From the NCBI GenBank assembly GCA_017549145.1, contig JAFYVM010000071.1, positions 1-46,661 of the forward strand: DNA of 46,661 nt, read 5' to 3'. Under the pieces are notes generated by a model, which was not told the origin of the DNA, searched no databases, and worked only from the letters and a program-made list of their open reading frames with translations. Numbering within the stretch: the first letter of the stretch is position 1; each line of letters starts with the position of its first letter. Positions 11,851 to 46,661 of the stretch are shown here, piece after piece. This DNA is from Bacteroidales bacterium. Its GTDB lineage: Bacteria; Bacteroidota; Bacteroidia; Bacteroidales; UBA932. Position numbers and translations under genes: made by a program.

Positions 11851-12180
11851 TAATAGGTAGAATGATCTGTCGCTATTATCGCTGATAATAGAGGAAAGTC
11901 CGGACTGGCAAGGGCACCCTGCTGTGGAAAGCACAGATGGGAGTAATCTTATGAATGCCGTAACAGAAAACAAACCGCCGCAAGGTAAGGATGAAACCGC
12001 GAGGTAAGAGCTCACGACATTATATGGCGACATATAGTGGTGACGGCACCAGGGCCAGAAAGACCATGTATACCGGAGCGTCCGCAAGGGCAGAAGGGCT
12101 GCCCGCTCTTTTCCGGGGGGTAGGTCGAGAAGATAAATGGCAGAATAAAACAGAAACCGGCTTACGGTTCTACCTAATTT
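11851..12180 (+). ncRNA. rnpB: RNase P RNA, bacterial class A
   Basis: The catalytic RNA of RNase P, which trims tRNA 5' leaders. Conserved segments appear in order: GAGGAAAGTCCGGAC at about 11891, the P4-side ACAGAAAAC near 11962, the stretch GGTAAGGATGAAACCGCGAG then GTAAGAGCTCAC near 12010, the GGGTAGGTCGAG-like run near 12118, and AGATAAATGGCAGAAT near 12131. P1 closes between TAGGTAGAA (11854-11862) and TTCTACCTA (12168-12176), which sets the ends to within a few bases. The gene starts about 11 bp after the oxidoreductase stop, and a terminator follows immediately. Confidence 0.95.
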
Positions 12181-23125: not shown

Positions 23126-24802
23126 TTACTTTGAAGTTTCATCTTCTGGAGTCTCCTCAACTAGAGGCTGGTCGTAAACTAGTTCGAATTCATCGACAAC
23201 AAGTTTTGACCCCTCACCTCCTGTGAAATAGTCTCCAAGATACGATGCACAGCAAGATATCACAATATACTTCGGAGTCCTTGTCTTGTCTCGATACTCG
23301 AGGTCAATCTGGAACTCGCGGAAGTCAGTGACTGTCTCATCAGACTCAAGTTTTCCGAATGCAATGATATGCTCATCATTCTCGAAATCCACAAATACTC
23401 CTGCAGTTGTATTAACTGTAAATGGAGCATCCCAGTCTGTCAAGAATACAAGGATCTGACATCTGTCTGTTGCCTTGCCGATAAGGTCGAGATATGGTTC
23501 CTTCGCGTGAGTGATAGTCATTGGAGAATACTTATAATATCCCTTCAATGCCATCGGCTTCTCAGTGAACTCTGTTCCCCAATCGAGGATAGCACCGATT
23601 CCCTGAACACGTCCGAACTTACCTACATACAGGTTACCAGCGGCAAATGCAACTGCTGCATTGCGGCTCACCATCTCTGCAGCCTTACGCACCTTTCCGT
23701 CCTGAACATCAGCATTCACAATGTCTTCAGTAGGATAAGTAGATGAACCAATGAACTTCGCGGCACCTGGGTTTGCTGAATCCCATACTGATGGAGAAGC
23801 TCCCTTAGCATATGGATACCAAACCTTATCATCCTGCCACCACTCGTCGAATGATGAGTTGTAAAGCTGAGTAGATACACCTGTGCGGAACGCAACCTCA
23901 GGAAGAATCTCGTCGTTAGCAATAATTCTTACAAGGTAGTCAGTTGACATCTCCAATCCATAGATCATTGCAGAAATATTGATTCCGTCAACAGTAATAT
24001 TCTCCTCTGGAATCACTGTCCACTCCTGAGCATCAGCCTGCTTGTACTCGAATACTGGAACCGGATTATCTCCACCACCGAAGGCAGCGATTACCTCAGC
24101 ATAGTAGCAACGAGCGTCAATTCCCTTAATCTCAGCAGCAACTTCTACAGGAACTGCGTACAATGTCCAAGGAATATCCTGGCCCTGGAAAGAAACATTG
24201 AATGTTCTCTTGACATCACAGTTAAGAACCATCGGGAACTCACAGTTGCGAGTAACCTCTGATGTCTCACCTGTCTGAGTATTCACTAGCTCAACAGCTG
24301 TTGTGTTAGTTACCACAGAACCAACTCTCTCAAGCTTCATATCAAGCACTTCGAGTCTATCAAGTCTCTGGCTCTGAGACACATAGACCTTCGCTACCCT
24401 ATTCTGAACATCAAATTCAGCCTCGCCGATCTGGTTTGCACAATATACATAGCGCTCAACCGGCTGGGTAGCCTTGATGGTCCACCAGTAGTCCTGATAC
24501 ATTGTCAACATCACCTCCATTGGTGAAGTAAGGTCCAATGTATTAGGAAAACTTCCATTCTTGAAACTTGCCTTCTCATTGAGTTCGACAGTATTAACAA
24601 CAAGCGATCCTAGCTCCACCTCCTCATTTACAACGAGGGAAACTGTGCGAGTCGCCGGATCAATAGTAGTCTCCAATGCACCCTCCACCTCTAGCTTGGT
24701 AAACTGCGCCAAGATTCTAGGAAGTGACATGTCATTTGAAAAACATGCTACCGCTAAGACTGCAACCAATGAAATTGACAATATGTTTTTAAACAATCTC
24801 AT
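23126..24802 (-). CDS. PCMD-domain surface lipoprotein
   Basis: A 558-residue lipoprotein (signal MRLFKNILSISLVAVLAVAC, lipid Cys20). After the signal, two Ig-like or DUF5018-like beta-sandwich segments (about 25-200) and an FN3-like domain (about 225-310, ending LVRIIANDEILPEVAFRT) precede a C-terminal PCMD domain (about 315-545). PCMD marks are NSSFDEWW, YPYAKGASPSVWDSAN, the VISCCASYLGDYFTGGEGS stretch and the final VDEFELVYD. This last part is nearly the same as in the 735-residue protein of this operon. The PCMD name means putative carbohydrate metabolism domain; no enzymatic activity is established. Placement after the barrel gene and before the permease suggests a joint surface function. 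Confidence 0.85.
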   Translation of the reverse strand: MRLFKNILSISLVAVLAVACFSNDMSLPRILAQFTKLEVEGALETTIDPATRTVSLVVNEEVELGSLVVNTVELNEKASFKNGSFPNTLDLTSPMEVMLTMYQDYWWTIKATQPVERYVYCANQIGEAEFDVQNRVAKVYVSQSQRLDRLEVLDMKLERVGSVVTNTTAVELVNTQTGETSEVTRNCEFPMVLNCDVKRTFNVSFQGQDIPWTLYAVPVEVAAEIKGIDARCYYAEVIAAFGGGDNPVPVFEYKQADAQEWTVIPEENITVDGINISAMIYGLEMSTDYLVRIIANDEILPEVAFRTGVSTQLYNSSFDEWWQDDKVWYPYAKGASPSVWDSANPGAAKFIGSSTYPTEDIVNADVQDGKVRKAAEMVSRNAAVAFAAGNLYVGKFGRVQGIGAILDWGTEFTEKPMALKGYYKYSPMTITHAKEPYLDLIGKATDRCQILVFLTDWDAPFTVNTTAGVFVDFENDEHIIAFGKLESDETVTDFREFQIDLEYRDKTRTPKYIVISCCASYLGDYFTGGEGSKLVVDEFELVYDQPLVEETPEDETSK

Positions 24803-24831
24803 TTCAATAAAAATTAACTCTACCTGCTAGA

Positions 24832-25956
24832 TTACTCTGCCTTTGGAGCTTTTTCCTTCTTAACCTTTGGCTCCTTTACCTTAGGTTCCTTTACCTTACT
24901 CTCCTTTGGAGTCTTCTCCTTCTTTACCTTCTCAGCTTTAGGAGCTTTCTCCTCTTTAACCTTCTCAGCCTTTGGAGCCTTCTCAGCCTTAGCTGCCTTC
25001 TCTACCTTAGCAGTCTTCTCTGTCTTAGTAGATGCCATAGCAGATGTAGCCAACTTCTCAGCCTCTACAGCCTGAGTTGACACTGCTGACGCTGACACGC
25101 CCCTAGCAACATAAGCCTTCTGCGCCTTCTTGCTGTGCTGACCAGTAGGGATATAGAAAGAAAGACCAAGGTTAACAGCAAGGAGATTTACCTTGAAGTT
25201 AGCGCTGCTGCTCTCAGCAACACTGAAATCCACCTGGTTAGTATTCTGAACCACCTTCTGATAATCGAGACCGATAAGTCCTACAGACATCTCAAGAGCG
25301 ATGTTGTTAGTGAAGAATGCAGTAATACCAGGGATTACACCGATATTGAACTTGTAGATATCCTGATATGTGCCAAGCTTATCTGTTGAGATGCCAGAAG
25401 CATCCTCGCCCTGTGAGTAGTTGAATGTCTCTGACTGAGCATATCCACCAGTACCACGGAGTTCAGCGAACATAGCAAATCTGCGGCTGTTGCCGAATGG
25501 GATATAATATCTAGCAGCAACTGAACCCAAATAAGAATTCTTGTTGTAATAGAAATCGTTGATTCCAAGACCAAGATCCATCACGTCGATTCCAAGGTTC
25601 TGGAGACCGAATGAAGTCTTGCTATACTCGAAACGCGCACCTACTGAGAGGTTATCCATTACGAAGTATGATACATATGGAGCAACTCCCACTGTAAGAA
25701 CCTCGCCCTGAATGCCTGTCAAAAGGCCGAAGAGCATCTTATATCCTGCATCATTTACTGCGTTACCAAGATCGTAAGTATTGTATGAAATTGCTGCACC
25801 GAAACCTACAGTTCCCTTAGGGATGAATGTAGATGTTGAGATGCCGATGTTTCTGGTGAACGGCTCGAAAGCCGCAGTATCTTTAACTTCCTTATTTGCT
25901 GCAAATGCGCTGAATGAAAGGCAAGCAGTCAATATGACAAATAGAATCTTTTTCAT
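24832..25956 (-). CDS. Outer-membrane beta-barrel protein with Lys/Glu/Ala/Pro repeat tail
   Basis: A 374-residue exported protein: signal MKKILFVILTACLSFSAFAA, then an eight-stranded OmpW/OprF-like barrel (about 35-275) with alternating strands such as YVSYFVMDNLSVGARFEY and LLAVNLGLSFYIPTG. The last 65 residues (nt about 24835-25029) are a low-complexity tail of repeated KAEKAPKAEKVKEEK and VKEPK units with no Trp, Tyr or Phe. The start is the ATG at 25956; an upstream TTG is in frame but weak. The tail would be periplasmic if the barrel ends there, and could contact peptidoglycan or negative polymers. It lies within the DUF4493/PCMD operon, 36 bp and 29 bp from its neighbours. Confidence 0.82.
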   Translation of the reverse strand: MKKILFVILTACLSFSAFAANKEVKDTAAFEPFTRNIGISTSTFIPKGTVGFGAAISYNTYDLGNAVNDAGYKMLFGLLTGIQGEVLTVGVAPYVSYFVMDNLSVGARFEYSKTSFGLQNLGIDVMDLGLGINDFYYNKNSYLGSVAARYYIPFGNSRRFAMFAELRGTGGYAQSETFNYSQGEDASGISTDKLGTYQDIYKFNIGVIPGITAFFTNNIALEMSVGLIGLDYQKVVQNTNQVDFSVAESSSANFKVNLLAVNLGLSFYIPTGQHSKKAQKAYVARGVSASAVSTQAVEAEKLATSAMASTKTEKTAKVEKAAKAEKAPKAEKVKEEKAPKAEKVKKEKTPKESKVKEPKVKEPKVKKEKAPKAE

Positions 25957-25992
25957 TGTATTCAATTCTTTATAGGTTAAAAATCTTAATCA

Positions 25993-28200
25993 TTAAAATA
26001 GGTTGAAGAAGTCTCTTCTCTGCTGGTCTGTAAGCGACTCATCTGATGGATCGTAAATAAACTCGAACTCGTCCACAAGCATTACTGAACCCTCACCACC
26101 AGTAAAGTAGTCTCCGAGGTAGCTTGCGCAACATGCTACGATAGCATATGTAGGAGTCTTATTGATATCACGATATCCCAATGGAAGAGTGAACGCTCTG
26201 TAGCTTGAGATAGTCTCTCCTGTTTCAATCTTGTTGTAAGCAATCAAAGTCTTGTTAGATGTCGAGAAGTCCACAAACTTATTTGCTCCTGAATCAACAA
26301 AGTAATAATAGTCTGAGTTGTTAGAAGAACAAGTTGTACCGTCAGCCAAAGCCACCTGGATAGAGCACTTATCTGGCTCATTCTTCAAATAGCTATGCGA
26401 ATTGTCATAAGCAGTGATTGGCTGCGGAGAGTACTTATAATAACCCTTCATCGCAACAGGACGGCCAGTGAATCTTACACCCCAGTTCAACTGAGCACCT
26501 GCTGGAGAGAGTGTCACATTTACAAAGTCACCAGTATAGATATTTCCTGCAGCGAACTTAGTCACACCAACGATAGAAACTGTCTTACTTTCCATTCTTG
26601 CAGCACTTCCCTTCACCACATCACTGGTTTCCTGAGTTGTGATATTGATTGTACTGAGTGAGCTAAGTCCCTCGTTCGCTGTATCCCAAACGCCATTATT
26701 CTTACCTGTATATGGATAAGCCACAGAACTTGTACCCCACTGATCGAAATTCAAGTTAGGAATTGTAGACGTACTTTCTGTCTTGGCAGAAACCACACCA
26801 TCAAGACCTCCATCCTTCGATGTAAAAGCTCTGAATGAGTATGTTGTATTCTCAGAAAGCTTGCAGATCATCGCCTTGAATGTCTTATCCGATGTGTTAA
26901 CCTCCTGGAGAAGGATATTCTCTTTTGTCCAATCAGAAGAGCCAGTCATATACTCGACTGTCAATCCTTCCGGTGCAGACGCTGCAAAATATCTACCCTT
27001 GACTACTACGAACTTAGCCCATGCATTTACTGAAGTGATCTCAGCAGGAGACATCACATTCACATTCACTGTAATGTTAGAAGTAAGGTCAAGCTCATTA
27101 GTAGCAGAAATAGTAAAGCTATAATTGCCTTTACCCAACTTGCCAAGGAACTGTGCGAAATCAGCATCAATATCAGTTGTATTCGAAACAAGTATACCTG
27201 TATCCACGCCATTTACATCTGCGAACTCAAGAGTAATACCTACTGCTGCAAGAGCCTGAAGAGTCTCCTCAGATGCATTCATCAACTCAGTTGACTCTGG
27301 AAGTCCGAGAGCAGCCAACGCTGAATTATTGTGAGTGATTACAACTGACTTATATCCCTTAGTTGAAACAACCTCATACAATGCAGACTCCATTGGAACT
27401 CCAGAGTAGAATGACACATTCTCGCTACCCATAATCACAGGGATATCAGGATAGATGAAGATTGGCATATCATACTCCTTCACATTGAACGAGTTATCAA
27501 CCGTAATAACGAATCCACCAGCACCCATAGGATCTGTAGATTCCTTTTCTACATCAAAGTACAAGTCATAATACTGTCGCGCTGCAACCTCTGTATATGA
27601 CTCGGTAAGCGTGAACACCTCACCCTTGACATTTGTTACCTCCAATGTCCATGAGAGTTTATCTGTAACATGGAAATATGCAGCCTTATCCAATGTGCCG
27701 GCATCCTCCGAGAACTCGAGAGCAGCCTCACCATTTGAAACAATCAACTTATAATCAAAGCTAGTGGTAAATGCTGAAGAGAACTCAGCTGTAACCTTGA
27801 CAGAAGCCAATGTACATACCACCTCAGATGTTGCCATCTGCATATTTCTCACTGTAAACTGCGACTCTCCATAATAGAAAGGCGCATCAAAAGCAGCAGA
27901 TCCCTGATCTACTCCAGAAGTAGCTACAACCTTGTAGTCTCCTGTTTTGAGCTGGATAGGCTCTGTGATCTGATTGACATCCTCTACAAAGATGCTTTCT
28001 CCTCCAAAGAGCGGCGTCAATGTCGCTGAAATTACAGCAGTCTCATCTCCGCTCTTGACGACTGGAACAATGTCCACGTCGGTATTGCATGAAACTCTCA
28101 GATCCAGATAGCCCATTCCCTGCTCCACCTGGTTCTCATTACAAGAGACCAAGGTAAAGAGCAAAGCCAAGCCTATCGATATGATATGATTAAATTTCAT
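25993..28200 (-). CDS. DUF4493 and PCMD-domain surface lipoprotein
   Basis: A 735-residue lipoprotein with signal MKFNHIISIGLALLFTLVSC (Cys20) followed by Asn-Glu, an acidic type of start common in Bacteroidetes surface-exported lipoproteins. The DUF4493 domain (about 25-225) begins MGYLDLRVSCN and contains YYGESQFTVRNMQ, then LASVKVTAEFSSAF. Beta-sandwich segments (about 230-470) follow, and the C-terminal PCMD domain (about 490-725) has NLNFDQWG, YPYTGKNNGVWDTAN, a CCASYLGDYFTGGEGS stretch and VDEFEFIYD. Its closest relative in the window is the 558-residue protein two genes on. Gaps to neighbours are 8 and 36 bp. Function unknown, likely a ligand-binding surface protein. Confidence 0.85.
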   Translation of the reverse strand: MKFNHIISIGLALLFTLVSCNENQVEQGMGYLDLRVSCNTDVDIVPVVKSGDETAVISATLTPLFGGESIFVEDVNQITEPIQLKTGDYKVVATSGVDQGSAAFDAPFYYGESQFTVRNMQMATSEVVCTLASVKVTAEFSSAFTTSFDYKLIVSNGEAALEFSEDAGTLDKAAYFHVTDKLSWTLEVTNVKGEVFTLTESYTEVAARQYYDLYFDVEKESTDPMGAGGFVITVDNSFNVKEYDMPIFIYPDIPVIMGSENVSFYSGVPMESALYEVVSTKGYKSVVITHNNSALAALGLPESTELMNASEETLQALAAVGITLEFADVNGVDTGILVSNTTDIDADFAQFLGKLGKGNYSFTISATNELDLTSNITVNVNVMSPAEITSVNAWAKFVVVKGRYFAASAPEGLTVEYMTGSSDWTKENILLQEVNTSDKTFKAMICKLSENTTYSFRAFTSKDGGLDGVVSAKTESTSTIPNLNFDQWGTSSVAYPYTGKNNGVWDTANEGLSSLSTINITTQETSDVVKGSAARMESKTVSIVGVTKFAAGNIYTGDFVNVTLSPAGAQLNWGVRFTGRPVAMKGYYKYSPQPITAYDNSHSYLKNEPDKCSIQVALADGTTCSSNNSDYYYFVDSGANKFVDFSTSNKTLIAYNKIETGETISSYRAFTLPLGYRDINKTPTYAIVACCASYLGDYFTGGEGSVMLVDEFEFIYDPSDESLTDQQRRDFFNLF

Positions 28201-28208
28201 CAGTAATC

Positions 28209-29492
28209 TTAGTAAGCAGGATTATAGAATGTCAATGACACCTCATATTTCTGATTTGAGTTATCCTCAAGCTCAAGAGTGAACACGTAGTCACCCTCTG
28301 GGAAACCTGTTGAACGGATAAGAGTTACAAGGTCAGTCAATGGGAACTGAACCACAGTCTGATCCTTAACCTGCTCAAGCATTGGAAGTGAAGTAACACC
28401 GAATGTCATAAGGTTTGCCTTAAGAGTTGTATCATTTACAAGGTCAAGGCAGTGAAGTTTATTACCCTCAGCATCATTTCCTGTAAGACCATCAATGATT
28501 TCCTGGAAGTTCTCGCTTACCCATACATTAAGAGTCTTGATTCCACCAGCTGCATAAATCACGAGATTAGCATCTGCGTTTCCTGCAACTACATCAGCAA
28601 TGTTCACTGTTGAGAATGTAGAGTTTGTAGCCCAATCCATGTAAGGCTTCTCAGGAAGCTGCTCACCAGAATCCTCCTCGTCCTCATCTGGAACTGGAAC
28701 CTCAGGAACTCCACCGAAGTTGATATCCTCATCTCTCTCATTCACCTCATTGCTTACTGAAAGGCTAAGAACATTAGCTGTACCAGTAACAACAGCGTCA
28801 ATGTTCAAGATGTGGTGATCGCGTGCCTGCCCATCCTTGATTTCATAAGTAACAGGAATCGGAGATGTACCGTCAACTGCTCTCTTACCAGTAATCTTCA
28901 CAGTAAGAGGAGCAACATCGAAGTAACCAGCCTTAGAGCTCATATTACCCTCTGTAAAATCAGCCTGAGTCCACTCAAGTGACTGTCTTCCAGACGCATA
29001 GTCACCAGTTACTGAAATAACATACTCGCTAAGCTCGCCAATGAAATTGTCAGTCAACTTAACGCTCACCTTCATATTTGAAAGAGCACATACAACCTCT
29101 ACAGGTGTAACTACGTCCTCTACGATAGTAAACTCAGCCTCACCGTAGTACTTAGGAGCATCCCAGCCTACGATTCTAGTCTCAGGAGAAACTGCAGTGA
29201 TAAGGAACTTACCAGGAGCAAGCTCTACAGACTCAGGAAACTCGGAGTAAAGCCAAGACTTAGTCCAATCGCTAGCCTCGCCATGCTCATCCTCCAACTT
29301 ATAAACTGTGATATTGAAGTTGCTCATATCCACCTGAGTGTCAGATGATTTAACTTCAATATATCCGCTCTCATCGCAACCAAGCGTGAAAGTCAAAATA
29401 CCTTTTCCTGAAGGTCTCTCAGGAAACACTTCCTTCTTACAGCTAGTCAACACTGCTGCCACTGCAAGAATAGTTAAGAGAATCTTTTTCAT
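28209..29492 (-). CDS. DUF4493-domain lipoprotein without PCMD
   Basis: A 427-residue lipoprotein: signal MKKILLTILAVAAVLTSC (Cys18) then KKE. DUF4493 covers about residues 33-260: GILTFTLGCDESGYIEV, the NFNITVYKLEDE strand, YYGEAEFTIVED and ALSNMKVSVKLTDNFIGEL. An acidic linker (PDEDEEDSGEQLPEKP, about 268-285) leads to a final all-beta region of about 140 residues ending LTFYNPAY. It lacks the C-terminal carbohydrate-metabolism domain found in its neighbours and may be an accessory or shorter partner. Gaps of 16 and 8 bp join it to the genes on either side. Confidence 0.84.
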   Translation of the reverse strand: MKKILLTILAVAAVLTSCKKEVFPERPSGKGILTFTLGCDESGYIEVKSSDTQVDMSNFNITVYKLEDEHGEASDWTKSWLYSEFPESVELAPGKFLITAVSPETRIVGWDAPKYYGEAEFTIVEDVVTPVEVVCALSNMKVSVKLTDNFIGELSEYVISVTGDYASGRQSLEWTQADFTEGNMSSKAGYFDVAPLTVKITGKRAVDGTSPIPVTYEIKDGQARDHHILNIDAVVTGTANVLSLSVSNEVNERDEDINFGGVPEVPVPDEDEEDSGEQLPEKPYMDWATNSTFSTVNIADVVAGNADANLVIYAAGGIKTLNVWVSENFQEIIDGLTGNDAEGNKLHCLDLVNDTTLKANLMTFGVTSLPMLEQVKDQTVVQFPLTDLVTLIRSTGFPEGDYVFTLELEDNSNQKYEVSLTFYNPAY

Positions 29493-29508
29493 ATATATTA
29501 TATCTTTT

Positions 29509-31758
29509 TTATTCGTAATTAAGGACTACTTCATCAAGCCATACAACATTTCCTGCATGGACGTCGCCAGAACCGGTATTATTTCCGCTTGTATTGAGAA
29601 TAGTATAGCTTGTCTTTCGACTATCTGTACTACCAGTAGATGAGGAAGCAAATATGATATATATCTTATCTGCCTTTCTATCAGTGATTGAGTATGTCAA
29701 CGGCACATCAACTTTTGTCCATGATGATACAGAAACGGCCTCACTTATATAAGTTCCTGTACCGATCTCTGTTGAACCATTATATAGCACAATGCTAGCT
29801 TTGAATGTATCTCCGTTACTATCGAATTTGTGATAGAATGACATTGAACTAGGGCGTGAAGGGAAAGAATGACCATTAGATATGTGAGTATTCTTTTTCT
29901 CACCTGAGTTGTCGGCCTTTCCAATATAAAGTTCACCTGTCTTAGCATCACCATTAGATATCTCAGAGCCATAGTCATCCACAGCGATTGATGCCACAAT
30001 GATAGAACGGCTTCCTGCATATACATCCTGTCCGGTCATACACACAGTAGGGAAAGTCTTGTATGTCAAATACGCTGTAGTCACGTCTGCATCAAGAGTT
30101 GCAGTACTGTTAACCGCCCACCAAGGATCGGTCTCACCCGACTTATATGGCTGATACCAAGTACGATATTCAGTAGTTGTTCCTCCAAACAAATACTTCT
30201 TATATGTAAACTTGAAAGACTCATAAGTGTGCTGCTCAAATCCATTGTTACCAACCTGAGTTGCAGCCTCAGTTGTAGCAGTCTTAACTACCTGAGTCAA
30301 AGGATTTCCGTTATATCTCGCACGGAACATATATTCAGTCGATGGCTCCAATCCTGCAACATCATAGATCATTACATTAGTTTCAGAACCCTCGCCTGCA
30401 ACACACATAGCCCAAGCATCCTCACCTGCAGATGCCTTCTTGTACTCCAAGCTAAGTGCATCAGGATTTCCTGAAGTAATGTAAGTCGAGACATTATCAA
30501 TTCTCTTAGCCCAGCAATTATATGTAGGAATATCATATAGTTCAAACTCAGGCTTACCCTGTTCAAAGGTAATAGGCTCTGTCTGAGCCTCGCCCATAGC
30601 CTGACGCTGGTCCTCTACTCTAAGGCTGAATGTAGCACTGAAAATATTGCCAGGATCGCACACCTGCTGCTCAATCCAATTAGCTACTCCAGAAAAGTCA
30701 ACATATCCAAGACGCTGACCGCTCATTGCATTAAGCCATCTAAGGCCAACAGCCTTAAGCGCAGCCTCAACCTCTGGATCAACTTTCTGTGCAAGGTCAA
30801 CAACCTCTGGAACTCCCTTTGCGCGGAGATATTCAGAAGTAACCTCGAGATAACAGTGGTTGATCAGACCTGGAGCAACGATATTCGCCTTAAGTCCTGA
30901 AAGATTGCTGTTAGCAGCCTCAATCAACGAATATGTCTTGTTTGAGAAATCATTACCAACATTGTCCACAGTGTTGATGACAGGAGCATCCTTTGGAAGC
31001 CAGCCCGAAGAAACCTCAACGTTCTTCTCCACCACCTCGACACCATTGTCAATTGTAGCAGAAAGAGTTACACTTCCATCAGCTTTCTCTGTGTCAACAT
31101 TGAATGTAATGAAATCATTTGGCTGAACAGCCATTTCTGGAGTGTGGTAGTACATCCAATCCTCGCCCACCTTGATGTAAAGCTCGACAACGAACTGTCC
31201 AGCAGGCATATAACCGGCTCTGGTCTCATTCTGAGAAAACTGAAGAGATCTCTTGCGACCACCCTTTGTAGTACACTTCACCTTTGCGTAATACTCCGGC
31301 CAGTCATACTTAAGTTCATCTCCATACACTACCGCCACCTTGGCATTGGCCATTTTGGCCTCAAGGCGTACGACTTCGTTAGTCTGAGGATGTACTGTAA
31401 GATTTGCCTGTGCGGCATAATAGATGGCATTAAAGCCGACTCCGAGCGAGTCTCCGTGTCTCGCGTGGACCATATAGTCCGCAGCATTGAGTGAGATCTG
31501 TTTTCCCACTGTATTTTCATAGGAGTCCCTGTAAAGTCTTAACAGGCCTTGATTTGCATACTTATAAATCTCGACCTTAAACTCATTTACATCAGGACTT
31601 CCGGACACGGCTTTTGTCGCATTGTCAACACGTATCTCCGGCTCAATCTGTATAGAAAGAGTACCGGTTTCCTGCGGCTGTTCCACCTCAAATGGCTTCT
31701 CAGCACACGCTGATACAATAGACACAATGGCGACAAGAATCAATGTTCTTAGTCTCAT
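29509..31758 (-). CDS. DUF4493 and PCMD-domain surface lipoprotein, first gene of the operon
   Basis: A 749-residue lipoprotein with signal MRLRTLILVAIVSIVSAC (Cys18). DUF4493 (about 30-250) opens GTLSIQIEPEIRVDNATKAVSG and contains FKVEIYKYANQG, YYAAQANLTVHPQTNE and MANAKVAVVYGDEL. Ig/FN3-like segments follow, with STEYMFRARYNGNPL near residue 490. The C-terminal PCMD-like region (from about 520) has NGFEQHTYESF, a jelly-roll core, and ends VVWLDEVVLNYE. The ATG at 31758 is chosen because the promoter predicts a start of transcription around 31783, leaving a leader of about 25 nt; an ATG at 31779 would be nearly leaderless and precede the signal peptide. Confidence 0.85.
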   Translation of the reverse strand: MRLRTLILVAIVSIVSACAEKPFEVEQPQETGTLSIQIEPEIRVDNATKAVSGSPDVNEFKVEIYKYANQGLLRLYRDSYENTVGKQISLNAADYMVHARHGDSLGVGFNAIYYAAQANLTVHPQTNEVVRLEAKMANAKVAVVYGDELKYDWPEYYAKVKCTTKGGRKRSLQFSQNETRAGYMPAGQFVVELYIKVGEDWMYYHTPEMAVQPNDFITFNVDTEKADGSVTLSATIDNGVEVVEKNVEVSSGWLPKDAPVINTVDNVGNDFSNKTYSLIEAANSNLSGLKANIVAPGLINHCYLEVTSEYLRAKGVPEVVDLAQKVDPEVEAALKAVGLRWLNAMSGQRLGYVDFSGVANWIEQQVCDPGNIFSATFSLRVEDQRQAMGEAQTEPITFEQGKPEFELYDIPTYNCWAKRIDNVSTYITSGNPDALSLEYKKASAGEDAWAMCVAGEGSETNVMIYDVAGLEPSTEYMFRARYNGNPLTQVVKTATTEAATQVGNNGFEQHTYESFKFTYKKYLFGGTTTEYRTWYQPYKSGETDPWWAVNSTATLDADVTTAYLTYKTFPTVCMTGQDVYAGSRSIIVASIAVDDYGSEISNGDAKTGELYIGKADNSGEKKNTHISNGHSFPSRPSSMSFYHKFDSNGDTFKASIVLYNGSTEIGTGTYISEAVSVSSWTKVDVPLTYSITDRKADKIYIIFASSSTGSTDSRKTSYTILNTSGNNTGSGDVHAGNVVWLDEVVLNYE

Positions 31759-31789
31759 TTTGTTTTGGTTTAGAATCATATTCAGCCAG

Positions 31790-31820
31790 CAAAGATAAAT
31801 ATAATTTATCAATTAACAAA
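31790..31820 (-). promoter_or_regulatory. Strong promoter of the DUF4493/PCMD operon
   Basis: On the reverse strand TTTG (31820-31817), 19 bp, then TATCTTTG (31797-31790): a full match to the Bacteroidetes -33/-7 consensus. No other promoter of similar quality was noticed in the short gaps inside the operon. Confidence 0.82.
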
Positions 31821-39102: not shown

Positions 39103-39708
39103 ATGCAGAACAAATTGCAAGAACTGACAGAGAAACTCTACGCAGAGGGTCTGTCAAAAGGAAAACAGGAAGGCGAGGAAATCCTTGCCAAGGCAAAGGT
39201 TCAGGCAGATGAGATCGTAGCCAAAGCACATGCTGAGGCTGCTGCTATCGTAGCTGCCGCTAAGAAGGACGCCGAGGATCTCAAGACTAAAGTAGAGAGC
39301 GACGTTAAGATGGCTGCAAGCCAGAGCGTGGCTGCTACAAAGAAGGATATTGAGACTCTAGTTGTTGCAAAGATGACTGAAGCTGAAGTAAAGAATGCCC
39401 TTACTTCGGCTGATTTTGTAAAAGAGGTTATCCTTGCAGTAGCTAAGGGATTCAATACTGAGGAGCCGGTTGATTTGGAAGTTGTGCTTCCAGAGGCTCT
39501 TAAGAAGGACCTTGAAGGATTCGTTGCAAAGGAACTCGCTAATGCTCTCAAGGGCAATGTAGAGGCTTCATTCAGCAAGAAGGTTGCCGGTGGATTCACA
39601 ATCGGACCTAAGGATGGCGGATATTTCATCAGCTTCACTGATGAGACATTCAATGCTCTCATTTCTGAGTATCTCAGACCTGCAACTAAGAAACTTCTCT
39701 TTGGCTGA
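39103..39708 (+). CDS. ntpE: V-type ATP synthase subunit E
   Basis: A 201-residue peripheral-stalk protein. The N-terminal half is a long Ala/Lys/Glu-rich helix (GKQEGEEILAKAKVQADEIV, then AKAHAEAAAIVAAAKK) with the right-handed coiled-coil pattern of the EG stalk. The C-terminal half is a small alpha/beta globular domain (VEASFSKKVAGGFTIGPKDG) that caps the head. ATG 39103 is used; 13 upstream codons in frame begin with TTG and are not supported. First gene of the E-DUF2764-A-B-D-I-K operon, 2 bp from the next gene. Confidence 0.88.
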   Translation: MQNKLQELTEKLYAEGLSKGKQEGEEILAKAKVQADEIVAKAHAEAAAIVAAAKKDAEDLKTKVESDVKMAASQSVAATKKDIETLVVAKMTEAEVKNALTSADFVKEVILAVAKGFNTEEPVDLEVVLPEALKKDLEGFVAKELANALKGNVEASFSKKVAGGFTIGPKDGGYFISFTDETFNALISEYLRPATKKLLFG

Positions 39709-39710
39709 TC

Positions 39711-40337
39711 ATGTCTAATTACGAATACATAGTAGCAAGTCTACCGGACATAACCACCGGATGGAAATTCGGTGAGAAGGGTCCGCAGGACTATATTGAG
39801 GAAATCGTCAGCCTTTGCTCTGAAAAGGACAATGAACTGATCGACTTTCTTTTGAGCGGCTACATGGATGAGAATCTCAACGCTGAATTCTACAGCAAGG
39901 CCCTCACCCATAAGGACCGTTTCATCAGCGAGTACTTCAGATTCGACCTTAATGTCCGCAACGCAAAGGTAAAGTACCTCAACAAAGCTCTTGAAAGACC
40001 TGCTGAACAGGATGTACTCACATTCTCCGAGGACGCTCCACAGGCTGTGCTTGATGCAGTTGAAGCGGAGTTCGAGGAGGCCGGTGAGCTTGAGACTGTA
40101 CTTAATGCAGGAGATATTCTCTCGAGAGAAAGAGGTATCGACGATCTGATGTGGGAAAAGATCAGCGATCTTACTACATTCAACTATTTCGACATTGACG
40201 CAATCCTTGGTTTCATCACCAAGTTAAACATCGTGGCAAGATGGTATAAGCTCGATGAGCAGACCGGACGCGAGATGTTCAAGCGCCTTGTTGACGAGGT
40301 TCGCGGCACATTCAAAGGTGTCGAGTATAATGGATAG
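39711..40337 (+). CDS. DUF2764 protein of V-ATPase operon (likely subunit C/d counterpart)
   Basis: A 208-residue helical, acidic soluble protein starting MSNYEYIVASLPDI. It matches DUF2764, a family found between subunits E and A in the V-ATPase operons of Bacteroidetes. No canonical subunit C is present in this operon, and the position suggests that DUF2764 fills the central-stalk socket role. This is inference from gene order. It ends in TAG, and 158 bp follow before subunit A. Confidence 0.85.
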   Translation: MSNYEYIVASLPDITTGWKFGEKGPQDYIEEIVSLCSEKDNELIDFLLSGYMDENLNAEFYSKALTHKDRFISEYFRFDLNVRNAKVKYLNKALERPAEQDVLTFSEDAPQAVLDAVEAEFEEAGELETVLNAGDILSRERGIDDLMWEKISDLTTFNYFDIDAILGFITKLNIVARWYKLDEQTGREMFKRLVDEVRGTFKGVEYNG

Positions 40338-40497
40338 AAAGTAATAATGCTAAAACTTTGAGCAAAGCGATGGTAAGTCCTCATCCTGAGGAGGAGGATT
40401 TAGGAGGTGGGTAACGTAAACATATTTTCATATTATGTACAAACCTCAAAGTCGTGATGAGTCAATAAATGTCCAAAAAAGTAATAACGCTAAAAAT
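40338..40497 (+). repeat. 18-bp direct repeat bounding a 140-bp segment before subunit A
   Basis: AAAGTAATAATGCTAAAA (40338-40355) recurs as AAAGTAATAACGCTAAAA (40478-40495), one mismatch in 18, and the second copy ends 2 bp before the subunit A ATG. Between them is a CCTCA/TGAGG hairpin (40379-40391) and a GGAGG-rich stretch unlike neighbouring gaps. The other gaps within this operon are 2-35 bp or overlaps. The segment looks inserted or duplicated. An ATG at 40435 in the subunit A frame lies within it. Confidence 0.65.
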
Positions 40498-42249
40498 ATG
40501 AAAACAACTGGTAAAGTAACGGGAATCGTTTCCAACCTTGTAACAGTCGAGGTCAACGGCCCTGTGTCTCAGAATGAGCTTTGCTACATCACTGTAGGCG
40601 ATACAAAGCTTATGGCCGAGGTCATCAAGGTCAATGGCAAGAGCGCTGCTGTTCAGGTATTCGAAAGTACCCGTGGACTAAAGAACGGTAACGACGTGGA
40701 GTTCGAGGACAAGATGCTCGAGGCCACTCTCGGACCAGGTCTTCTTTCAAGCAGCTACGACGGTCTGCAGAATGACCTTACAACAATGACCGGCGTATTC
40801 CTTAAGAGAGGTGAATATACAAACCCTCTCAACCACGAGAAGCTTTGGGACTACACCCCTATCGCAAAGCCAGGTGACAAGGTTGTCGCTGCAGATTGGC
40901 TTGGTGAAGTAAAGGAAGGATGGCTCCCTCACAAGATTATGGTTCCATTCTCATTCAAGGGAGAGTACACCGTAAAATCTGTGGTTGAAGCAGGACAGTA
41001 CAATATTGAAAAGGTAGTCGCTGTCCTCACAGACGCCTCAGGCGAAGATGTAGAGGTAAAGATGTACCAGAAATGGCCAGTTAAAGTGGCTATCAAGGGA
41101 TATAAGGAGAAACCAAGACCATCACGCATCATGGAGACTGGTGTTCGCGTAATCGACACCCTCAACCCTATCGCAGAAGGTGGTACAGGCTTCATCCCTG
41201 GTCCATTCGGTTGCGGTAAGACTGTGCTTCAGCATGCTATTGCAAAGCAGGGTGATGCTGAGGTTATCGTGATGGCAGCCTGCGGTGAGCGTGCAAACGA
41301 GGTTGTGGAGATCTTCACTGAGTTCCCTGAGCTCATTGACCCACACACAGGACGTCACCTTATGGAGCGTACAACCATCATCTGTAACACTTCAAACATG
41401 CCGGTTGCAGCTCGTGAGGCATCAGTTTATACAGCGATGACAATTTGCGAGTACTACCGTGCAATGGGTCTTAAGGTCCTTCTCCTTGCTGACTCTACTT
41501 CTCGTTGGGCTCAGGCTCTCCGTGAGATGTCGAACCGTATGGAGGAGCTTCCAGGAGCAGACGCATTCCCTGTGGACCTTTCAGCAATTATCTCAGCGTT
41601 CTACGCTCGCGCAGGTATGGTCGTTCTCAACAATGGCCAGACTGGTTCAGTAACATTCATCGGAACAGTATCTCCAGCTGGTGGTAACCTCAAGGAGCCT
41701 GTGACTGAGTCTACAAAGAAGGCTGCACGTTGCTTCTACGCTCTCGAGCAGAACCGCGCAGACCAGAAGCGCTACCCTGCTGTTAACCCTATCGACTCAT
41801 ATTCTAAATATCTCGAATATCCAGAAATCCGTGAACACCTTTCAGAGAAGGTAAGACCAGGTTGGGTGGAGATGGTAGAGAAGGCAAAGAACATTATCCG
41901 CAAAGGTAAGGATGCCAACGACCAGATCAACATCCTCGGTGATGACGGTGTGCCTATGAGCTACCACGAGCTCTTCTGGAAGTCTGAGCTTGTTGACTTC
42001 GTTATCCTTCAGCAGGATGCGTTCGATGCAATTGATGCACTTTGTCCACTTGAGCGTCAGAGCTATATGCTAGAGCTTGTACTTGGAATCTGCGATAAAG
42101 AGTTCACATTCGAGGACTATGAGCAGTGCCGTAACTTCTTCAAGGAGACAATCAACCTCCTTCGTCAGATGAACTACTCTGAGTTCCACAGCGAGAAGTT
42201 CGAAAACTATAAAGAGAAACTTAATACACTCCTGAGCAATGGCAACTAA
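40498..42249 (+). CDS. ntpA: V-type ATP synthase subunit A (catalytic)
   Basis: The nucleotide-hydrolysing subunit, 583 residues. The N-terminal beta-barrel (KVTGIVSNLVTVEVNGPVSQNE) is followed by the bulge domain and the P-loop GPFGCGKT at residues 235-242. ACGERANEVVEIF and LADSTSRWAQALREMSNRMEELPGADAFP follow, with a helical C-terminal domain. The start is the ATG at 40498, giving the standard length and N-terminus; the in-frame ATG at 40435 would add 21 residues encoded by the inserted-looking segment. Its last 11 nt overlap subunit B. Confidence 0.96.
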   Translation: MKTTGKVTGIVSNLVTVEVNGPVSQNELCYITVGDTKLMAEVIKVNGKSAAVQVFESTRGLKNGNDVEFEDKMLEATLGPGLLSSSYDGLQNDLTTMTGVFLKRGEYTNPLNHEKLWDYTPIAKPGDKVVAADWLGEVKEGWLPHKIMVPFSFKGEYTVKSVVEAGQYNIEKVVAVLTDASGEDVEVKMYQKWPVKVAIKGYKEKPRPSRIMETGVRVIDTLNPIAEGGTGFIPGPFGCGKTVLQHAIAKQGDAEVIVMAACGERANEVVEIFTEFPELIDPHTGRHLMERTTIICNTSNMPVAAREASVYTAMTICEYYRAMGLKVLLLADSTSRWAQALREMSNRMEELPGADAFPVDLSAIISAFYARAGMVVLNNGQTGSVTFIGTVSPAGGNLKEPVTESTKKAARCFYALEQNRADQKRYPAVNPIDSYSKYLEYPEIREHLSEKVRPGWVEMVEKAKNIIRKGKDANDQINILGDDGVPMSYHELFWKSELVDFVILQQDAFDAIDALCPLERQSYMLELVLGICDKEFTFEDYEQCRNFFKETINLLRQMNYSEFHSEKFENYKEKLNTLLSNGN

Positions 42250-43561
42250 GGCATTTCAGAAAATATACACACAGTTGGAAGCCATCACAAAAGCAACTGT
42301 AGCACTCCGTGCGCAGGGAATTTCCAACGATGAGCTCGCTGTCGTAGACGGCAGACTTGCTCAGGTCGTAAAGACAAAAGGTGACCTTGTGACACTTCAG
42401 GTGTTCTCAGGTACTGAGGGTATCCCTACCAACGCTGAGGTAACATTCCTCGGAGTTCCTCCTACACTTAAGGTAAGTGATGAACTCGCCGGACGTTTCT
42501 TCGACGCTTATGGTAAGCCACTCGATGGCGGTCCGGAGGTAGAGGGAACAGAGGTTCAGATCGGTGGTCCATCAGTTAACCCTTACAAGAGAAGACAGCC
42601 ATCACAGATCATCCCTACCGGTATCGCAGGTATCGACCTCAACAACACCCTTGTGTCAGGACAGAAGATTCCTTTCTTCGCTGACCCTGACCAGCCATAT
42701 AATAATGTAATGGCACAGGTGGCACTTCGTGCAGACGTTGATAAGATCATCCTCGGTGGTATGGGTCTTACAAACGACGACTACCTCTACTTCAAGCATG
42801 AGTTTGAGGCTGCAGGTGCTCTCGACAAGATCATCTCATTCGTAAATACAACAGAGCAGCCACCAGTTGAGCGTCTTCTTATTCCAGATATGGCCCTCAC
42901 AGCAGCTGAGTACTTCGCAGTAGAGAAGAACGAGAAGGTTCTCGTACTCCTCACCGACATGACTCTTTATGCCGATGCGCTCTCTATCGTATCGAACCGT
43001 ATGGACCAGATTCCTTCTAAGGACTCAATGCCAGGTTCACTCTACTCAGACCTTGCAAAGATCTACGAGAAGGCCGTACAGCTCCCTGCAGGTGGTTCAA
43101 TCACCATTATCGCGGTGACGACCCTCAACGACGGAGATATCACACACGCTATTCCAGATAACACAGGATATATCACAGAGGGACAGCTCTTCCTCCGTGC
43201 AGATCCAGACTCAGGTAAGGTCATCATTGACCCATTCCGTTCACTCTCACGTCTAAAACAGCTCGTTCAGGGTAAGCAGACACGTAAGGACCACAGCCAG
43301 GTGATGAATGCATCTGTACGTCTTTATGCCGATGCTCAGAACGCTAAGACAAAACTCGAGAATGGTTTCGACCTCAGTGATTACGACCTTCGTTGTCTTG
43401 ACTACGCTAAGGCATATGCAACACGCATCCTTGCCATCGACGTAAACATCAAGATCGACGAGATGCTTGACACAGCTTGGGAGCTCTTCGGAACTTACTT
43501 TACAAAAGCTGAGACAGGTATCAAACAGGAGTTTATTGATCAGTACTGGAAAGGTAACTAA
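42239..43561 (+). CDS. ntpB: V-type ATP synthase subunit B
   Basis: The non-catalytic nucleotide-site subunit, 440 residues. Features: the N-terminal barrel (LVTLQVFSGTEGIPTNAEV), the sequence YKRRQPSQIIPTGIAGIDLNNTLVSGQKIPFF, then ADPDQPYNN in place of a P-loop, as expected for B. LTDMTLYADALSIVSNRMDQIPS and the C-terminal helices follow. The ATG at 42239 overlaps the end of subunit A by 11 nt. It ends 2 bp before the subunit D start. Confidence 0.95.
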   Translation: MATKAFQKIYTQLEAITKATVALRAQGISNDELAVVDGRLAQVVKTKGDLVTLQVFSGTEGIPTNAEVTFLGVPPTLKVSDELAGRFFDAYGKPLDGGPEVEGTEVQIGGPSVNPYKRRQPSQIIPTGIAGIDLNNTLVSGQKIPFFADPDQPYNNVMAQVALRADVDKIILGGMGLTNDDYLYFKHEFEAAGALDKIISFVNTTEQPPVERLLIPDMALTAAEYFAVEKNEKVLVLLTDMTLYADALSIVSNRMDQIPSKDSMPGSLYSDLAKIYEKAVQLPAGGSITIIAVTTLNDGDITHAIPDNTGYITEGQLFLRADPDSGKVIIDPFRSLSRLKQLVQGKQTRKDHSQVMNASVRLYADAQNAKTKLENGFDLSDYDLRCLDYAKAYATRILAIDVNIKIDEMLDTAWELFGTYFTKAETGIKQEFIDQYWKGN

Positions 43562-43563
43562 TT

Positions 43564-44175
43564 ATGGCAATTAAATTTCAATATAATAAGACCTCTCTGA
43601 ACAACTAGAACAAGCAGCTCAAGATGAGGAAGAACGCCCTCCCGACGTTGAAGAACAAGGAGTCGGCACTTCGTCTTGAAGTCCGCAAGGCCAAGGAGTA
43701 TTCAGAGAAGCTTATTGAAGATCTTGATGCCGCACTGAAGAAATATGATTATCTAGCAGCTCTCTGGAATGAGTTTGACGCTGGACTTATCACCATTACA
43801 GATGTAGATCTTGTAACTGTGAAAGTTGCCGGTGTAAAGACTCCAGACCTTAAAGAGATCCACTACCAGATCAATGACTTCAACGCATTTGCAAAACCAG
43901 CATGGTATGCAGACGGAGTCACTATTCTGAAGGAGCTCTCAAGACTAGGTATTGAATCCGAAGTCTATAAGGAGAAAGCTAGAATTCTTGATTTCAACAG
44001 AAAGAAGACCACTCAGAAGGTAAACCTTTACGAGAAGGTACAGATTCCTGGATATCAGGAGGCAATCAGAAAGATCAAACGATATATGGAAGACGAGGAG
44101 AACCTCTCTAAAGCAGCTTCCAAGATCGTTAAATGCAGACACGAAATCGAAGAGGAGGAGCAGAACAATGGTTGA
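43564..44175 (+). CDS. ntpD: V-type ATP synthase subunit D, interrupted by an in-frame TAG at codon 15
   Basis: Subunit D is the central rotor shaft. The reading frame starts MAIKFQYNKTSLNN at 43564, 2 bp after subunit B, and continues NKQLKMRKNALPTLKNKESALRLE after an amber codon at 43606-43608. N- and C-terminal helices together form a coiled coil; here the C-terminal part (EDEENLSKAASKIVKCRHEIEEEE) is intact. Without the stop it has 203 residues, the family's length. Relatives have Leu where the stop is, so TTG to TAG is a simple explanation. Reinitiation at ATG 43624 would give 183 residues without the N-terminal 20. TAG also ends several intact genes here, so it is not globally recoded. 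Confidence 0.85.
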
Positions 44176-46006
44176 TAAAATGATGAAATACTCTTTCATT
44201 CTCCTTAGTGAGGAGACTGAAGGATTCCTGGCGAGGCTCCAGGAGTTAGGAGTCGTTGACGTGACCCGTTCTGCGAAACCTATTGACGAGCACTCAGCTG
44301 CTATAATGGATGCTGTCAGCTCAGCTAAGAAAGTGATTGGAAAGTTGGAAAGCTTGAACTTCACTAAGGATGCGGGAGAAGATGAAATCCAGAAAGCAAA
44401 AGAAGCAGCAATTCTTGATGCAGACCTTACAGCCGGAGCACAGCAGGCACTTGTCGAGCTTATGGAGCTCGAGCTTGCTAAAGCAGCGGCAGAAAAAGAG
44501 GTGGCATTGAGACAGCCTTGGGGTGAGTTCGACAAATCGCGTCTTGACCAGCTTAATACTCTCGGCTATGCTGTGAGGTACTATAAAGTCTCAGCCAAGA
44601 AGTTTGACCCAGCATGGGGAGAACTCTACCCGCTCGAGATCATTAACCAGGACAGTTCATACGTATGGTTTGTAACAGTAGCATCCTCATCAGAGGAATA
44701 CAGCTTCCCGGTTGACACTACCCCAGCTCCAGAAGGATCTTGGAAGGAAGCTCAAGCAGTTGCAGATTCACTCAATGAGAACATCTACAAAGTTAAAGGT
44801 CTATTGCTCAAATATCAGGAGGCAATCCCTCAGATGAATGAGACCAACAGACAGGAACTCGTAGATCTCGACATGTACCTTGCAAAGGCTGCTACAGAAT
44901 CTGCTGCAGACAATCTACTAAGCGTACTCGAAGGTTTTGCACCAATCGAGAACGACGAGGAGCTATGCAAGAAGTTCGACCAGATGGGTGTCCTCTATAT
45001 CAGAGAAGAAGCTGTAGAAGATGACAATCCGCCAATCCGCCTTAAGAACGGATGGTTTGCAAGATTGTTCGAGGTACTTACAGGAATGTACGGTATGCCG
45101 GGCTACAAAGAATTTGACCCTACACCGATTCTTGCTCCATTCTACCTTTTGTTCTTTGCAATGTGTATGGGAGACGCCGGCTACGGCCTTGTACTCATAC
45201 TCTTTGGACTTGGAGTTACCAAGAAGTGGATCAATATCGACATGTTCAAGAACATCGGTCCACTCATCTCAGTTCTCGGTGTCGGAACATTGGTAGTAGG
45301 TCTCGTACTTGGAACGGCATTCGGTATCAGCCTTGCTGACGCTGCATGGTATCCAGAGGCATTGAAGAAATTCATGGTTGTCGGAGACATCGCAGGCTTC
45401 CCTGCCCAGATGATTCTTGCACTTGGAATCGGAGTCTTCCATATCTGTCTTGCAATGATTGTCAAAGCAATCGGATACACCAAGAGATTCGGATTCAAGG
45501 AGAACATCAGTACATGGGGATGGCTCATCCTTATCTTGGGAGGACTTATCCTCGCAGCAGTTGGCATGACAGGTTTCCTCAGCCCACTTGCTATGAAGAT
45601 TTCGATTATCGTCCTCGCAGTAGTTTCAGGACTTGGCATCTACATCTTCAACACACCTGGAAGAAATCCTCTCGCGAACATCGGATCTGGACTTTGGGAT
45701 ACCTATAATATGATTACAGGTCTCCTCGGCGACGTACTCAGTTATATTCGTCTCTACGCCCTTGGTCTTGCTGGAGGTATGCTCGGACAGGCATTCAACA
45801 TCCTTGGCGGCATGATGGTGGAAGATGGATTTGGAGCTATCAACTGGCTTCCATTCCTTCTCATCGTCCTCTTCGGACACACGCTCAACCTCGCGATGTC
45901 ATGCCTTGGAGCATTTGTACACCCTCTACGTCTTACATTCGTTGAGTACTTCAAGAATGCAGGTTATGAGGGAAAAGGAAAGGAGTATTCTCCACTTAAA
46001 AAGTAA
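44168..46006 (+). CDS. ntpI: V-type ATP synthase subunit I (membrane stator a-subunit)
   Basis: A 612-residue protein: a long soluble N-terminal half of alpha/beta and coiled-coil segments (1-310) and about seven to eight membrane helices. The helix SYIRLYALGLAGGMLGQAFN holds the conserved Arg (R528) that releases the ion from the rotor ring. EYSFPVDTTPAPEG is in the soluble part, and the early membrane helices contain LFFAMCMGDAGYGL, a subunit I signature. The ATG at 44168 overlaps subunit D by 8 nt. The last helices end GAFVHPLRLTFVEYFKNAGY, also typical. Confidence 0.94.
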   Translation: MVDKMMKYSFILLSEETEGFLARLQELGVVDVTRSAKPIDEHSAAIMDAVSSAKKVIGKLESLNFTKDAGEDEIQKAKEAAILDADLTAGAQQALVELMELELAKAAAEKEVALRQPWGEFDKSRLDQLNTLGYAVRYYKVSAKKFDPAWGELYPLEIINQDSSYVWFVTVASSSEEYSFPVDTTPAPEGSWKEAQAVADSLNENIYKVKGLLLKYQEAIPQMNETNRQELVDLDMYLAKAATESAADNLLSVLEGFAPIENDEELCKKFDQMGVLYIREEAVEDDNPPIRLKNGWFARLFEVLTGMYGMPGYKEFDPTPILAPFYLLFFAMCMGDAGYGLVLILFGLGVTKKWINIDMFKNIGPLISVLGVGTLVVGLVLGTAFGISLADAAWYPEALKKFMVVGDIAGFPAQMILALGIGVFHICLAMIVKAIGYTKRFGFKENISTWGWLILILGGLILAAVGMTGFLSPLAMKISIIVLAVVSGLGIYIFNTPGRNPLANIGSGLWDTYNMITGLLGDVLSYIRLYALGLAGGMLGQAFNILGGMMVEDGFGAINWLPFLLIVLFGHTLNLAMSCLGAFVHPLRLTFVEYFKNAGYEGKGKEYSPLKK

Positions 46007-46026: not shown

Positions 46027-46482
<456 letters not shown>

Positions 46483-46521: not shown

Positions 46522-46661
46522 TGACATGAACCCCGAAAGTTAGACAAAAAACTTTCGGGGTTTTGTTATGAAATTTTGTTTTGAAATTAAGCTGGAAGCT
46601 GTTAAACGTTACTTGTCAGGTTATACTGAAAGACAGGTTACAGAACATTATGGTGTTAACA
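46522..46661 (+). mobile_element. IS3-family (IS150-like) insertion sequence, left end, cut by window
   Basis: The left terminal inverted repeat TGACATGAACCCCGAAAGTT, then AGACA, fits the IS150-group form (TG, a C run, then AAAGTTAGACA). It includes a 10-bp inverted repeat, CCCCGAAAGT/ACTTTCGGGG (46531-46540 and 46551-46560). The first transposase ORF begins 46 bp in. The right end is outside the window. Confidence 0.78.
46568..46661 (+). CDS. IS3-family transposase OrfA, N-terminal fragment
   Basis: Thirty-one codons are visible: MKFCFEIKLEAVKRYLSGYT, then ERQVTEHYGVN. This is the N-terminal helix-turn-helix of IS3/IS150-type OrfA (pattern FxxKLxAVxxYLxGxSxxxVAxxxGV). The rest, including the frameshift site into OrfB, is not in the window. 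Confidence 0.85.
   Translation, partial: MKFCFEIKLEAVKRYLSGYTERQVTEHYGVN

What the first reader, a model, noticed from the sequence alone, without database searches (positions are those of the whole stretch)
43564..44175. In-frame amber stop at codon 15 of V-ATPase subunit D
The frame beginning at the ATG 2 bp after subunit B reads into TAG at 43606-43608 and then continues without interruption for a full-length subunit D. TAG terminates other genes here (dNK, the OYE, DUF2764, the 8330 gene), so it is not simply reassigned. Options: a point mutation (Leu TTG to TAG) with loss of the pump, reinitiation at Met 43624 with a shortened rotor shaft, programmed read-through, or a sequencing error. 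The rest of the operon is intact, which argues against long-standing decay.
Basis: partly seen in the sequence, partly recalled or inferred. Interest (0 to 1): 0.72.

Follow-up and report, generated by a model that had tools for sequence, protein, structure and literature searches.

The report
Private nonsense mutation in V-ATPase gene
One draft genome of an uncultured gut bacterium carries a single-letter change that stops a proton-pump gene after 14 codons; the relatives examined do not share it, and it looks like an ordinary recent mutation or an assembly error rather than new biology.

Summary
TAG at 43606-43608 is codon 15 of an otherwise intact V-ATPase subunit D gene. The genome is a draft, 78 contigs, 83% complete; named close kin are mostly gut Bacteroidales MAGs.

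The codon is a sense codon in the 135 other D copies read from the genus and in all 80 named loci (the sets overlap). It is TTG in the ten near relatives compared. So it is a private one-base change. The other 202 codons show strong purifying selection (dN/dS 0.011 against the nearest relative), so any loss is very recent.

Recoding has no support. TAG ends 5 of 35 window genes. RF1 is encoded, split over two contig ends. None of 35 tRNA genes found has anticodon CTA, though the set is incomplete. A scan of 847 kb found only ends of adjacent genes.

It is a real loss-of-function allele or a consensus error of an apparently strain-mixed assembly; only reads can tell. Restart at Met21 would drop 20 conserved residues. 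Interest is low.

The parts
43606..43608 (+). In-frame TAG, codon 15 of the D gene
   Evidence: Read directly. Sense codon in the 135 other genus copies read and in 80 named loci; TTG in ten near relatives.
43564..44175 (+). V-ATPase subunit D gene, full reading frame interrupted at codon 15
   Evidence: Frame and N-terminus shared with relatives; dN/dS 0.011-0.048 against ten relatives.
43624..44175 (+). Open frame behind the stop from Met21, 183 residues; possible restart product
   Evidence: PF01813. NF002565 171.4 bits, under its cut-off of 189.
39103..39708 (+). V-ATPase subunit E-like gene (ORF listed from 39064)
   Evidence: NF002424, 108.2 bits, under its cut-off of 241; no Pfam family.
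39711..40337 (+). DUF2764 gene of the V-ATPase operon, ends in TAG
   Evidence: PF10962, 96.3 bits; stop codon.
40435..42249 (+). V-ATPase subunit A (ORF as listed; the true start is probably the Met at 40498)
   Evidence: NF003220, 752.9 bits, from residue 23 on; start read.
42239..43561 (+). V-ATPase subunit B
   Evidence: NF002555, 678.8 bits, over its cut-off.
44168..46006 (+). V-ATPase subunit I; its start overlaps the D stop by 8 bases
   Evidence: PF01496, NF004429 203.3 bits, under its cut-off; overlap read.
46042..46482 (+). V-ATPase subunit K
   Evidence: PF00137, 101.8 bits.

Best explanation
A private, very recent single-base nonsense change in an ordinary V-ATPase subunit D gene, with no special decoding. 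Shown: the codon is TTG in the near relatives compared and TAG only here; the rest of the gene was under strong purifying selection and the neighbouring operon genes are open; TAG is a normal stop in this genome and RF1 is encoded. Inferred: if the base is real in living cells, RF1 ends translation after 14 residues, no working rotor shaft is made and the V-ATPase does not assemble; the cell, which also encodes an F-type gamma subunit, lives without it or the allele is short-lived. Not decided: whether the base belongs to real cells (my estimate 45%) or is a consensus error, or a rare allele picked by the assembly, of a strain-mixed sample (about 47%).
For: One stop among 136 genus D copies read, Leu/Ile/Met/Val in the other 135; sense codon in 80 of 80 named loci; TTG in ten near relatives, dN/dS 0.011-0.048; 11 of 13 near relatives matched a probe over the site, all 11 with TTG. 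TAG ends 5 of 35 window genes and 60 of 369 coding frames. RF1 pieces. F-type gamma. Contig ends in RF1 that leave one base out suggest strain mixture.
Against: Nothing found speaks directly against it. D and B of the 151-genome draw hold three internal nonsense codons, this one included, and rpoB none in about 111,000 positions; this weakly favours real alleles over error, but the numbers are too small. The A-rich context of Met21 leaves room for partial rescue by restart.
Confidence: 0.92

Rival explanations
1. Consensus or assembly error alone: no cell, or only a rare one, has TAG here. This is one half of the best explanation, stated by itself.
For: Draft in 78 contigs, 3.62% contamination. 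RF1 breaks between two contig ends with one base missing, as a single-base bubble would leave it (inference). Other drafts show isolated breaks too: L250 has a 10-base tandem duplication in D and a split subunit A, L251 has split B and E.
Against: The change is a clean substitution outside any homopolymer. rpoB has no internal stop in 104 stretches of 98 genus genomes, so error stops are rare. No other broken gene was seen in the window or by the scan of 847 kb, which finds about 61% of simulated interior stops.
Confidence: 0.47
2. Real nonsense allele rescued by restart at Met21: ribosomes that stop at TAG begin again 15 bases on and make a D that lacks its first 20 residues.
For: In-frame ATG at 43624. 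The 20 bases before it are 45% A, like real starts in the window (mean 40% of 15); 4% of 175 internal ATGs have as much.
Against: 13 of the first 20 residues are invariant in 21 relatives. Without them the NF002565 score falls under its cut-off here (171.4) and in a relative (171.8), against 196-198 for three full-length D. No Shine-Dalgarno-like motif; the predicted fold around this start is stronger than around the normal one (-8.2 against -3.8 kcal/mol). In T. thermophilus the N-terminal helix of D contacts subunit B (PMC8904598, passages).
Confidence: 0.05
3. Programmed read-through or an amber-suppressor tRNA inserts an amino acid at codon 15.
For: The frame continues without a break and stayed conserved. 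The tRNA set is incomplete (none found for Phe, Ile, Trp, Tyr), so a suppressor could be missing from the draft.
Against: No relative read has a stop there. None of 35 tRNA genes has anticodon CTA. TAG ends ordinary genes. RF1 is encoded. The scan showed no other in-frame TAG that was not a gene end. No unusual fold (z -0.80).
Confidence: 0.02
4. Normal alternative start: the gene really begins at Met21 and the first 14 codons are not coding.
For: An ATG exists at 43624.
Against: 134 of 136 genus copies carry the N-terminal stretch in frame, the other two being cut by a contig edge. The NF002565 profile begins at residue 1 of full-length D. The residue at place 21 is Met in some relatives and Val or Ile in many others.
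Confidence: 0.01

Closest known systems
V-type ATP synthase subunit D, NCBIfam NF002565 (PRK02195) and Pfam PF01813, as in related Bacteroidales
   Same: Same gene, same operon place between B and I, 98% identical protein in the nearest relative
   Different: Stop at codon 15; the open part behind it does not reach the NF002565 cut-off
V/A-ATPase subunit D of Thermus thermophilus (PDB 3w3a, 3a5c, chain G)
   Same: Homologous rotor shaft; the profile of 21 relatives aligns from its residue 16 with residue 14 or 15 of the chain
   Different: Intact, and distant in sequence (31 bits, E about 1e-6)
Isolated nonsense codons in draft genomes of the same genus (G049 contig C211 subunit D, G128 subunit B)
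   Same: Single internal stop in an otherwise open V-ATPase gene
   Different: Other places, other genomes; the G049 copy is one of three D copies in that draft

Membership tests
V-ATPase subunit D (NF002565 / PF01813) | Score over the curated cut-off by the product as decoded with the standard code | tested here: not met
   From Met21: PF01813 107.7 against 25.7, met; NF002565 171.4 against 189, not met. Full-length relatives reach 196-198. The gene is a D gene; its standard-code product is not a full D.
V-ATPase subunit D (NF002565 / PF01813) | Place in a V-ATPase operon next to A and B | tested here: met
   E, DUF2764, A, B, D, I, K in one row.
Recoded or read-through amber codon | Stop conserved at the same place in relatives | tested here: not met
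   0 of 135 other genus copies read, 0 of 80 named loci.
Recoded or read-through amber codon | Cognate suppressor tRNA (anticodon CTA) | tested here: inconclusive
   None among 35 tRNA genes found, but four amino acids have no tRNA in the draft.
Recoded or read-through amber codon | TAG not used as an ordinary stop, or other in-frame TAG codons | tested here: not met
   TAG ends 5 of 35 window genes and 60 of 369 coding frames; the TAG candidates of the scan are ends of adjacent genes.
Recent nonsense mutation (pseudogene in the making) | Single change to a codon intact in relatives, rest of the gene conserved | tested here: met
   TTG in ten near relatives; dN/dS 0.011-0.048 over the other codons.
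Recent nonsense mutation (pseudogene in the making) | Base supported by raw reads | not testable with these tools
   No reads held.

The most novel reading that the evidence does not exclude
The V-ATPase of these gut Bacteroidales is conditionally dispensable, and nonsense alleles of its rotor and catalytic-head genes segregate in natural populations, where an F-type synthase can take over. The TAG would then be a snapshot of pump loss under way. D and B of the 151-genome draw hold three internal stops, rpoB none; by my count this difference is not significant.
Probability: 0.15. Interest if true: 0.35.

Novelty: already known. Interest (0 to 1): 0.12.

Why it matters
Mainly as a caution: an isolated stop in a metagenome-assembled gene should be held against relatives and reads before recoding or pump loss is claimed. 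If the allele is real, it says that this pump can be lost, which bears on why these bacteria keep both a V-type and an F-type rotary ATPase.

Tried and rejected
Alternative start: rejected, the N-terminus is conserved in relatives. Old decay: rejected by dN/dS and the open neighbouring genes. Recoding: rejected. A second, intact D in the draft: none found. Insertion in RF1: considered because the gene is split; both contig ends are RF1 sequence only.

Hot spot near codon 15: L250 (Reindeer_1_mag_63) has a 10-base tandem duplication at codons 13-16 that shifts the frame. Its subunit A is split too, so I take it for likely sequence error. Rows flagged with a stop that I do not count as internal nonsense: G131 D and G047 B, at or close to the usual C-terminal end, and G146 D, whose frame is lost near the C-terminus. 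In the 80 named loci the stops aligned to subunit A (8 rows, residues 10-21) probably lie before its true start (inference), and one in K is near its end.

Limits: the codon-usage scan covers 36% of the genome, finds 607 of 993 simulated interior stops, and does not flag the D stop itself, which has only 14 coding codons before it. The match lists are cut. The base-rate sets overlap in genomes.

No use: phage search with the D gene (no match), viral-contig scan over the site (no match), paper searches apart from what is cited. PMC5758568 was opened for passages and not used.

Full report
What is there. The D frame starts 2 bases after the stop of subunit B, reads 14 codons, meets TAG at 43606-43608 and runs open to TGA at 44173-44175. 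The open part is a V-ATPase D by Pfam. The neighbours E, DUF2764, A, B, I and K are open and recognisable. Of 28 further window proteins scanned, 24 match a Pfam family and none looks cut short; the other 4 have no family. The window is one contig of a 2,351,949-base draft in 78 contigs, 83.09% complete and 3.62% contaminated, with one D found. Named relatives are mostly Bacteroidales MAGs, many from animal guts; three of the 80 are named Candidatus Cryptobacteroides. That the window's own genus is this one is inference.

Relatives. Of 151 genus genomes (own included), 136 have a match to D, in 138 rows. I read 136 copies, own included; two rows that hold only the C-terminal end (G107, G136) were left out. 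Codon 15 is Leu in 106, Ile in 17, Met in 11, Val in 1 and a stop in 1, this one. In 80 named loci, partly the same genomes, it is a sense codon in all 80; in one of these (L250) the frame is shifted just before it. Ten distinct near relatives all have TTG. A probe over the site matched own plus 11 of 13 near relatives, all 11 with TTG; of the two misses G391 has TTG (L263) and G123 has CTC (L006). In a larger draw 368 of 400 genus genomes have D; in the rows listed (the list is cut) two are flagged, this TAG and G131, and the G131 stop is at its usual end.

Age. Against the nearest relative D shows 53 synonymous and 3 non-synonymous differences over 202 codons, dS 0.56, dN 0.0064, ratio 0.011. 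Against the other nine the ratio is 0.015-0.048. Selection acted on the gene until the stop arose, so old decay is excluded.

No recoding. TAG ends 5 of 35 window genes and 60 of 369 coding frames in 846,661 bases of this genome. The scans for stops inside coding-like stretches gave six distinct candidates over all settings, two of them TAG; in each the next gene's ATG follows within a few to about 15 codons. RF1 is encoded in two pieces at contig ends; 37 of 41 genomes searched, own not among the 37, have it over the cut-off in one piece. None of 35 tRNA genes has anticodon CTA: 34 by ARAGORN, one at a contig edge read by eye as GAC. One has anticodon TAG, a Leu tRNA for CUA, which is not a suppressor. 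No tRNA for Phe, Ile, Trp or Tyr was found, so the set is incomplete. The RNA around the stop folds no better than shuffles (z -0.80).

Restart. Met21 lies 15 bases behind the stop. The 20 bases before it are 45% A, like real starts in the window (mean 40% of 15), and 4% of 175 internal ATGs have as much; there is no Shine-Dalgarno-like motif. Some restart is plausible. But 13 of the 20 lost residues are invariant in 21 relatives, and their loss drops the NF002565 score under its cut-off here and in a relative. In T. thermophilus the N-terminal helix of D contacts subunit B (PMC8904598, passages seen). A working short D is unlikely. Because the start of I overlaps the D stop, loss of D translation might also lower I (inference).

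Real allele or error. RF1 breaks between contigs C30 and C55: the pieces match profile positions 1-182 and 184-357, and the ends leave two bases of the missing codon, so one base is absent; no foreign sequence is seen on either side. The missing base would be the third of a Gly codon (motif recalled). A single-base bubble in an assembly graph leaves such a gap (recalled), so the sample probably held more than one strain; MAGs are described as population consensus genomes (PMC11446047, search listing). Control: rpoB shows no internal stop in 104 matched stretches of 98 of 151 genomes, about 111,000 positions by my sum; the own genome has no rpoB match. D and B in the same draw show three internal stops, this one, G049 contig C211 D codon 30 and G128 B, in roughly 85,000 codons by my estimate. 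In the 80 named loci I saw no internal nonsense codon in 170,359 codons of seven operon genes, and frame breaks in two MAGs, L250 and L251. Pooled, that is three (two without this one) in about 366,000 codons. A window of this size holds about 13,500 codons by my estimate, so an isolated stop in a window picked for looking odd is not surprising. The difference between V-ATPase and rpoB is not significant by a simple binomial estimate (about 0.08 for D and B alone, 0.3 with the named loci).

Verdict. An ordinary private nonsense change, real or artefactual, with no sign of a new decoding or translation mechanism. If real, translation ends after 14 residues and the V-ATPase lacks its shaft; an F-type gamma gene is present, so the cell need not lack a rotary ATPase. 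Reads decide.

Noticed in passing
G000 contigs C30 (start, L180) and C55 (end, L179): The RF1 gene is split between two contig ends with one base missing and no foreign sequence, which looks like an assembly break at a single-base variant.
   Followed up: partly
L250, about 5926-5990: A 10-base tandem duplication at codons 13-16 of D shifts the frame in Reindeer_1_mag_63; subunit A is split in the same locus.
   Followed up: partly
L034 (G049 C211) and L087 (G128 C6): Isolated internal stops: TAG at codon 30 of one of three D copies in G049, and TGA in subunit B of G128.
   Followed up: partly
window 44168-44175: The start of subunit I overlaps the end of D by 8 bases, so translation of the two may be coupled.
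   Followed up: no
window 46570-46661: The contig ends inside what looks like the start of a transposase gene (reading by eye, no search done).
   Followed up: no
window 23126-31812, minus strand: Cluster of proteins with DUF4493 and PCMD domains.
   Followed up: no
window 11854-12180: Bacterial RNase P RNA, class A, 184.6 bits.
   Followed up: no
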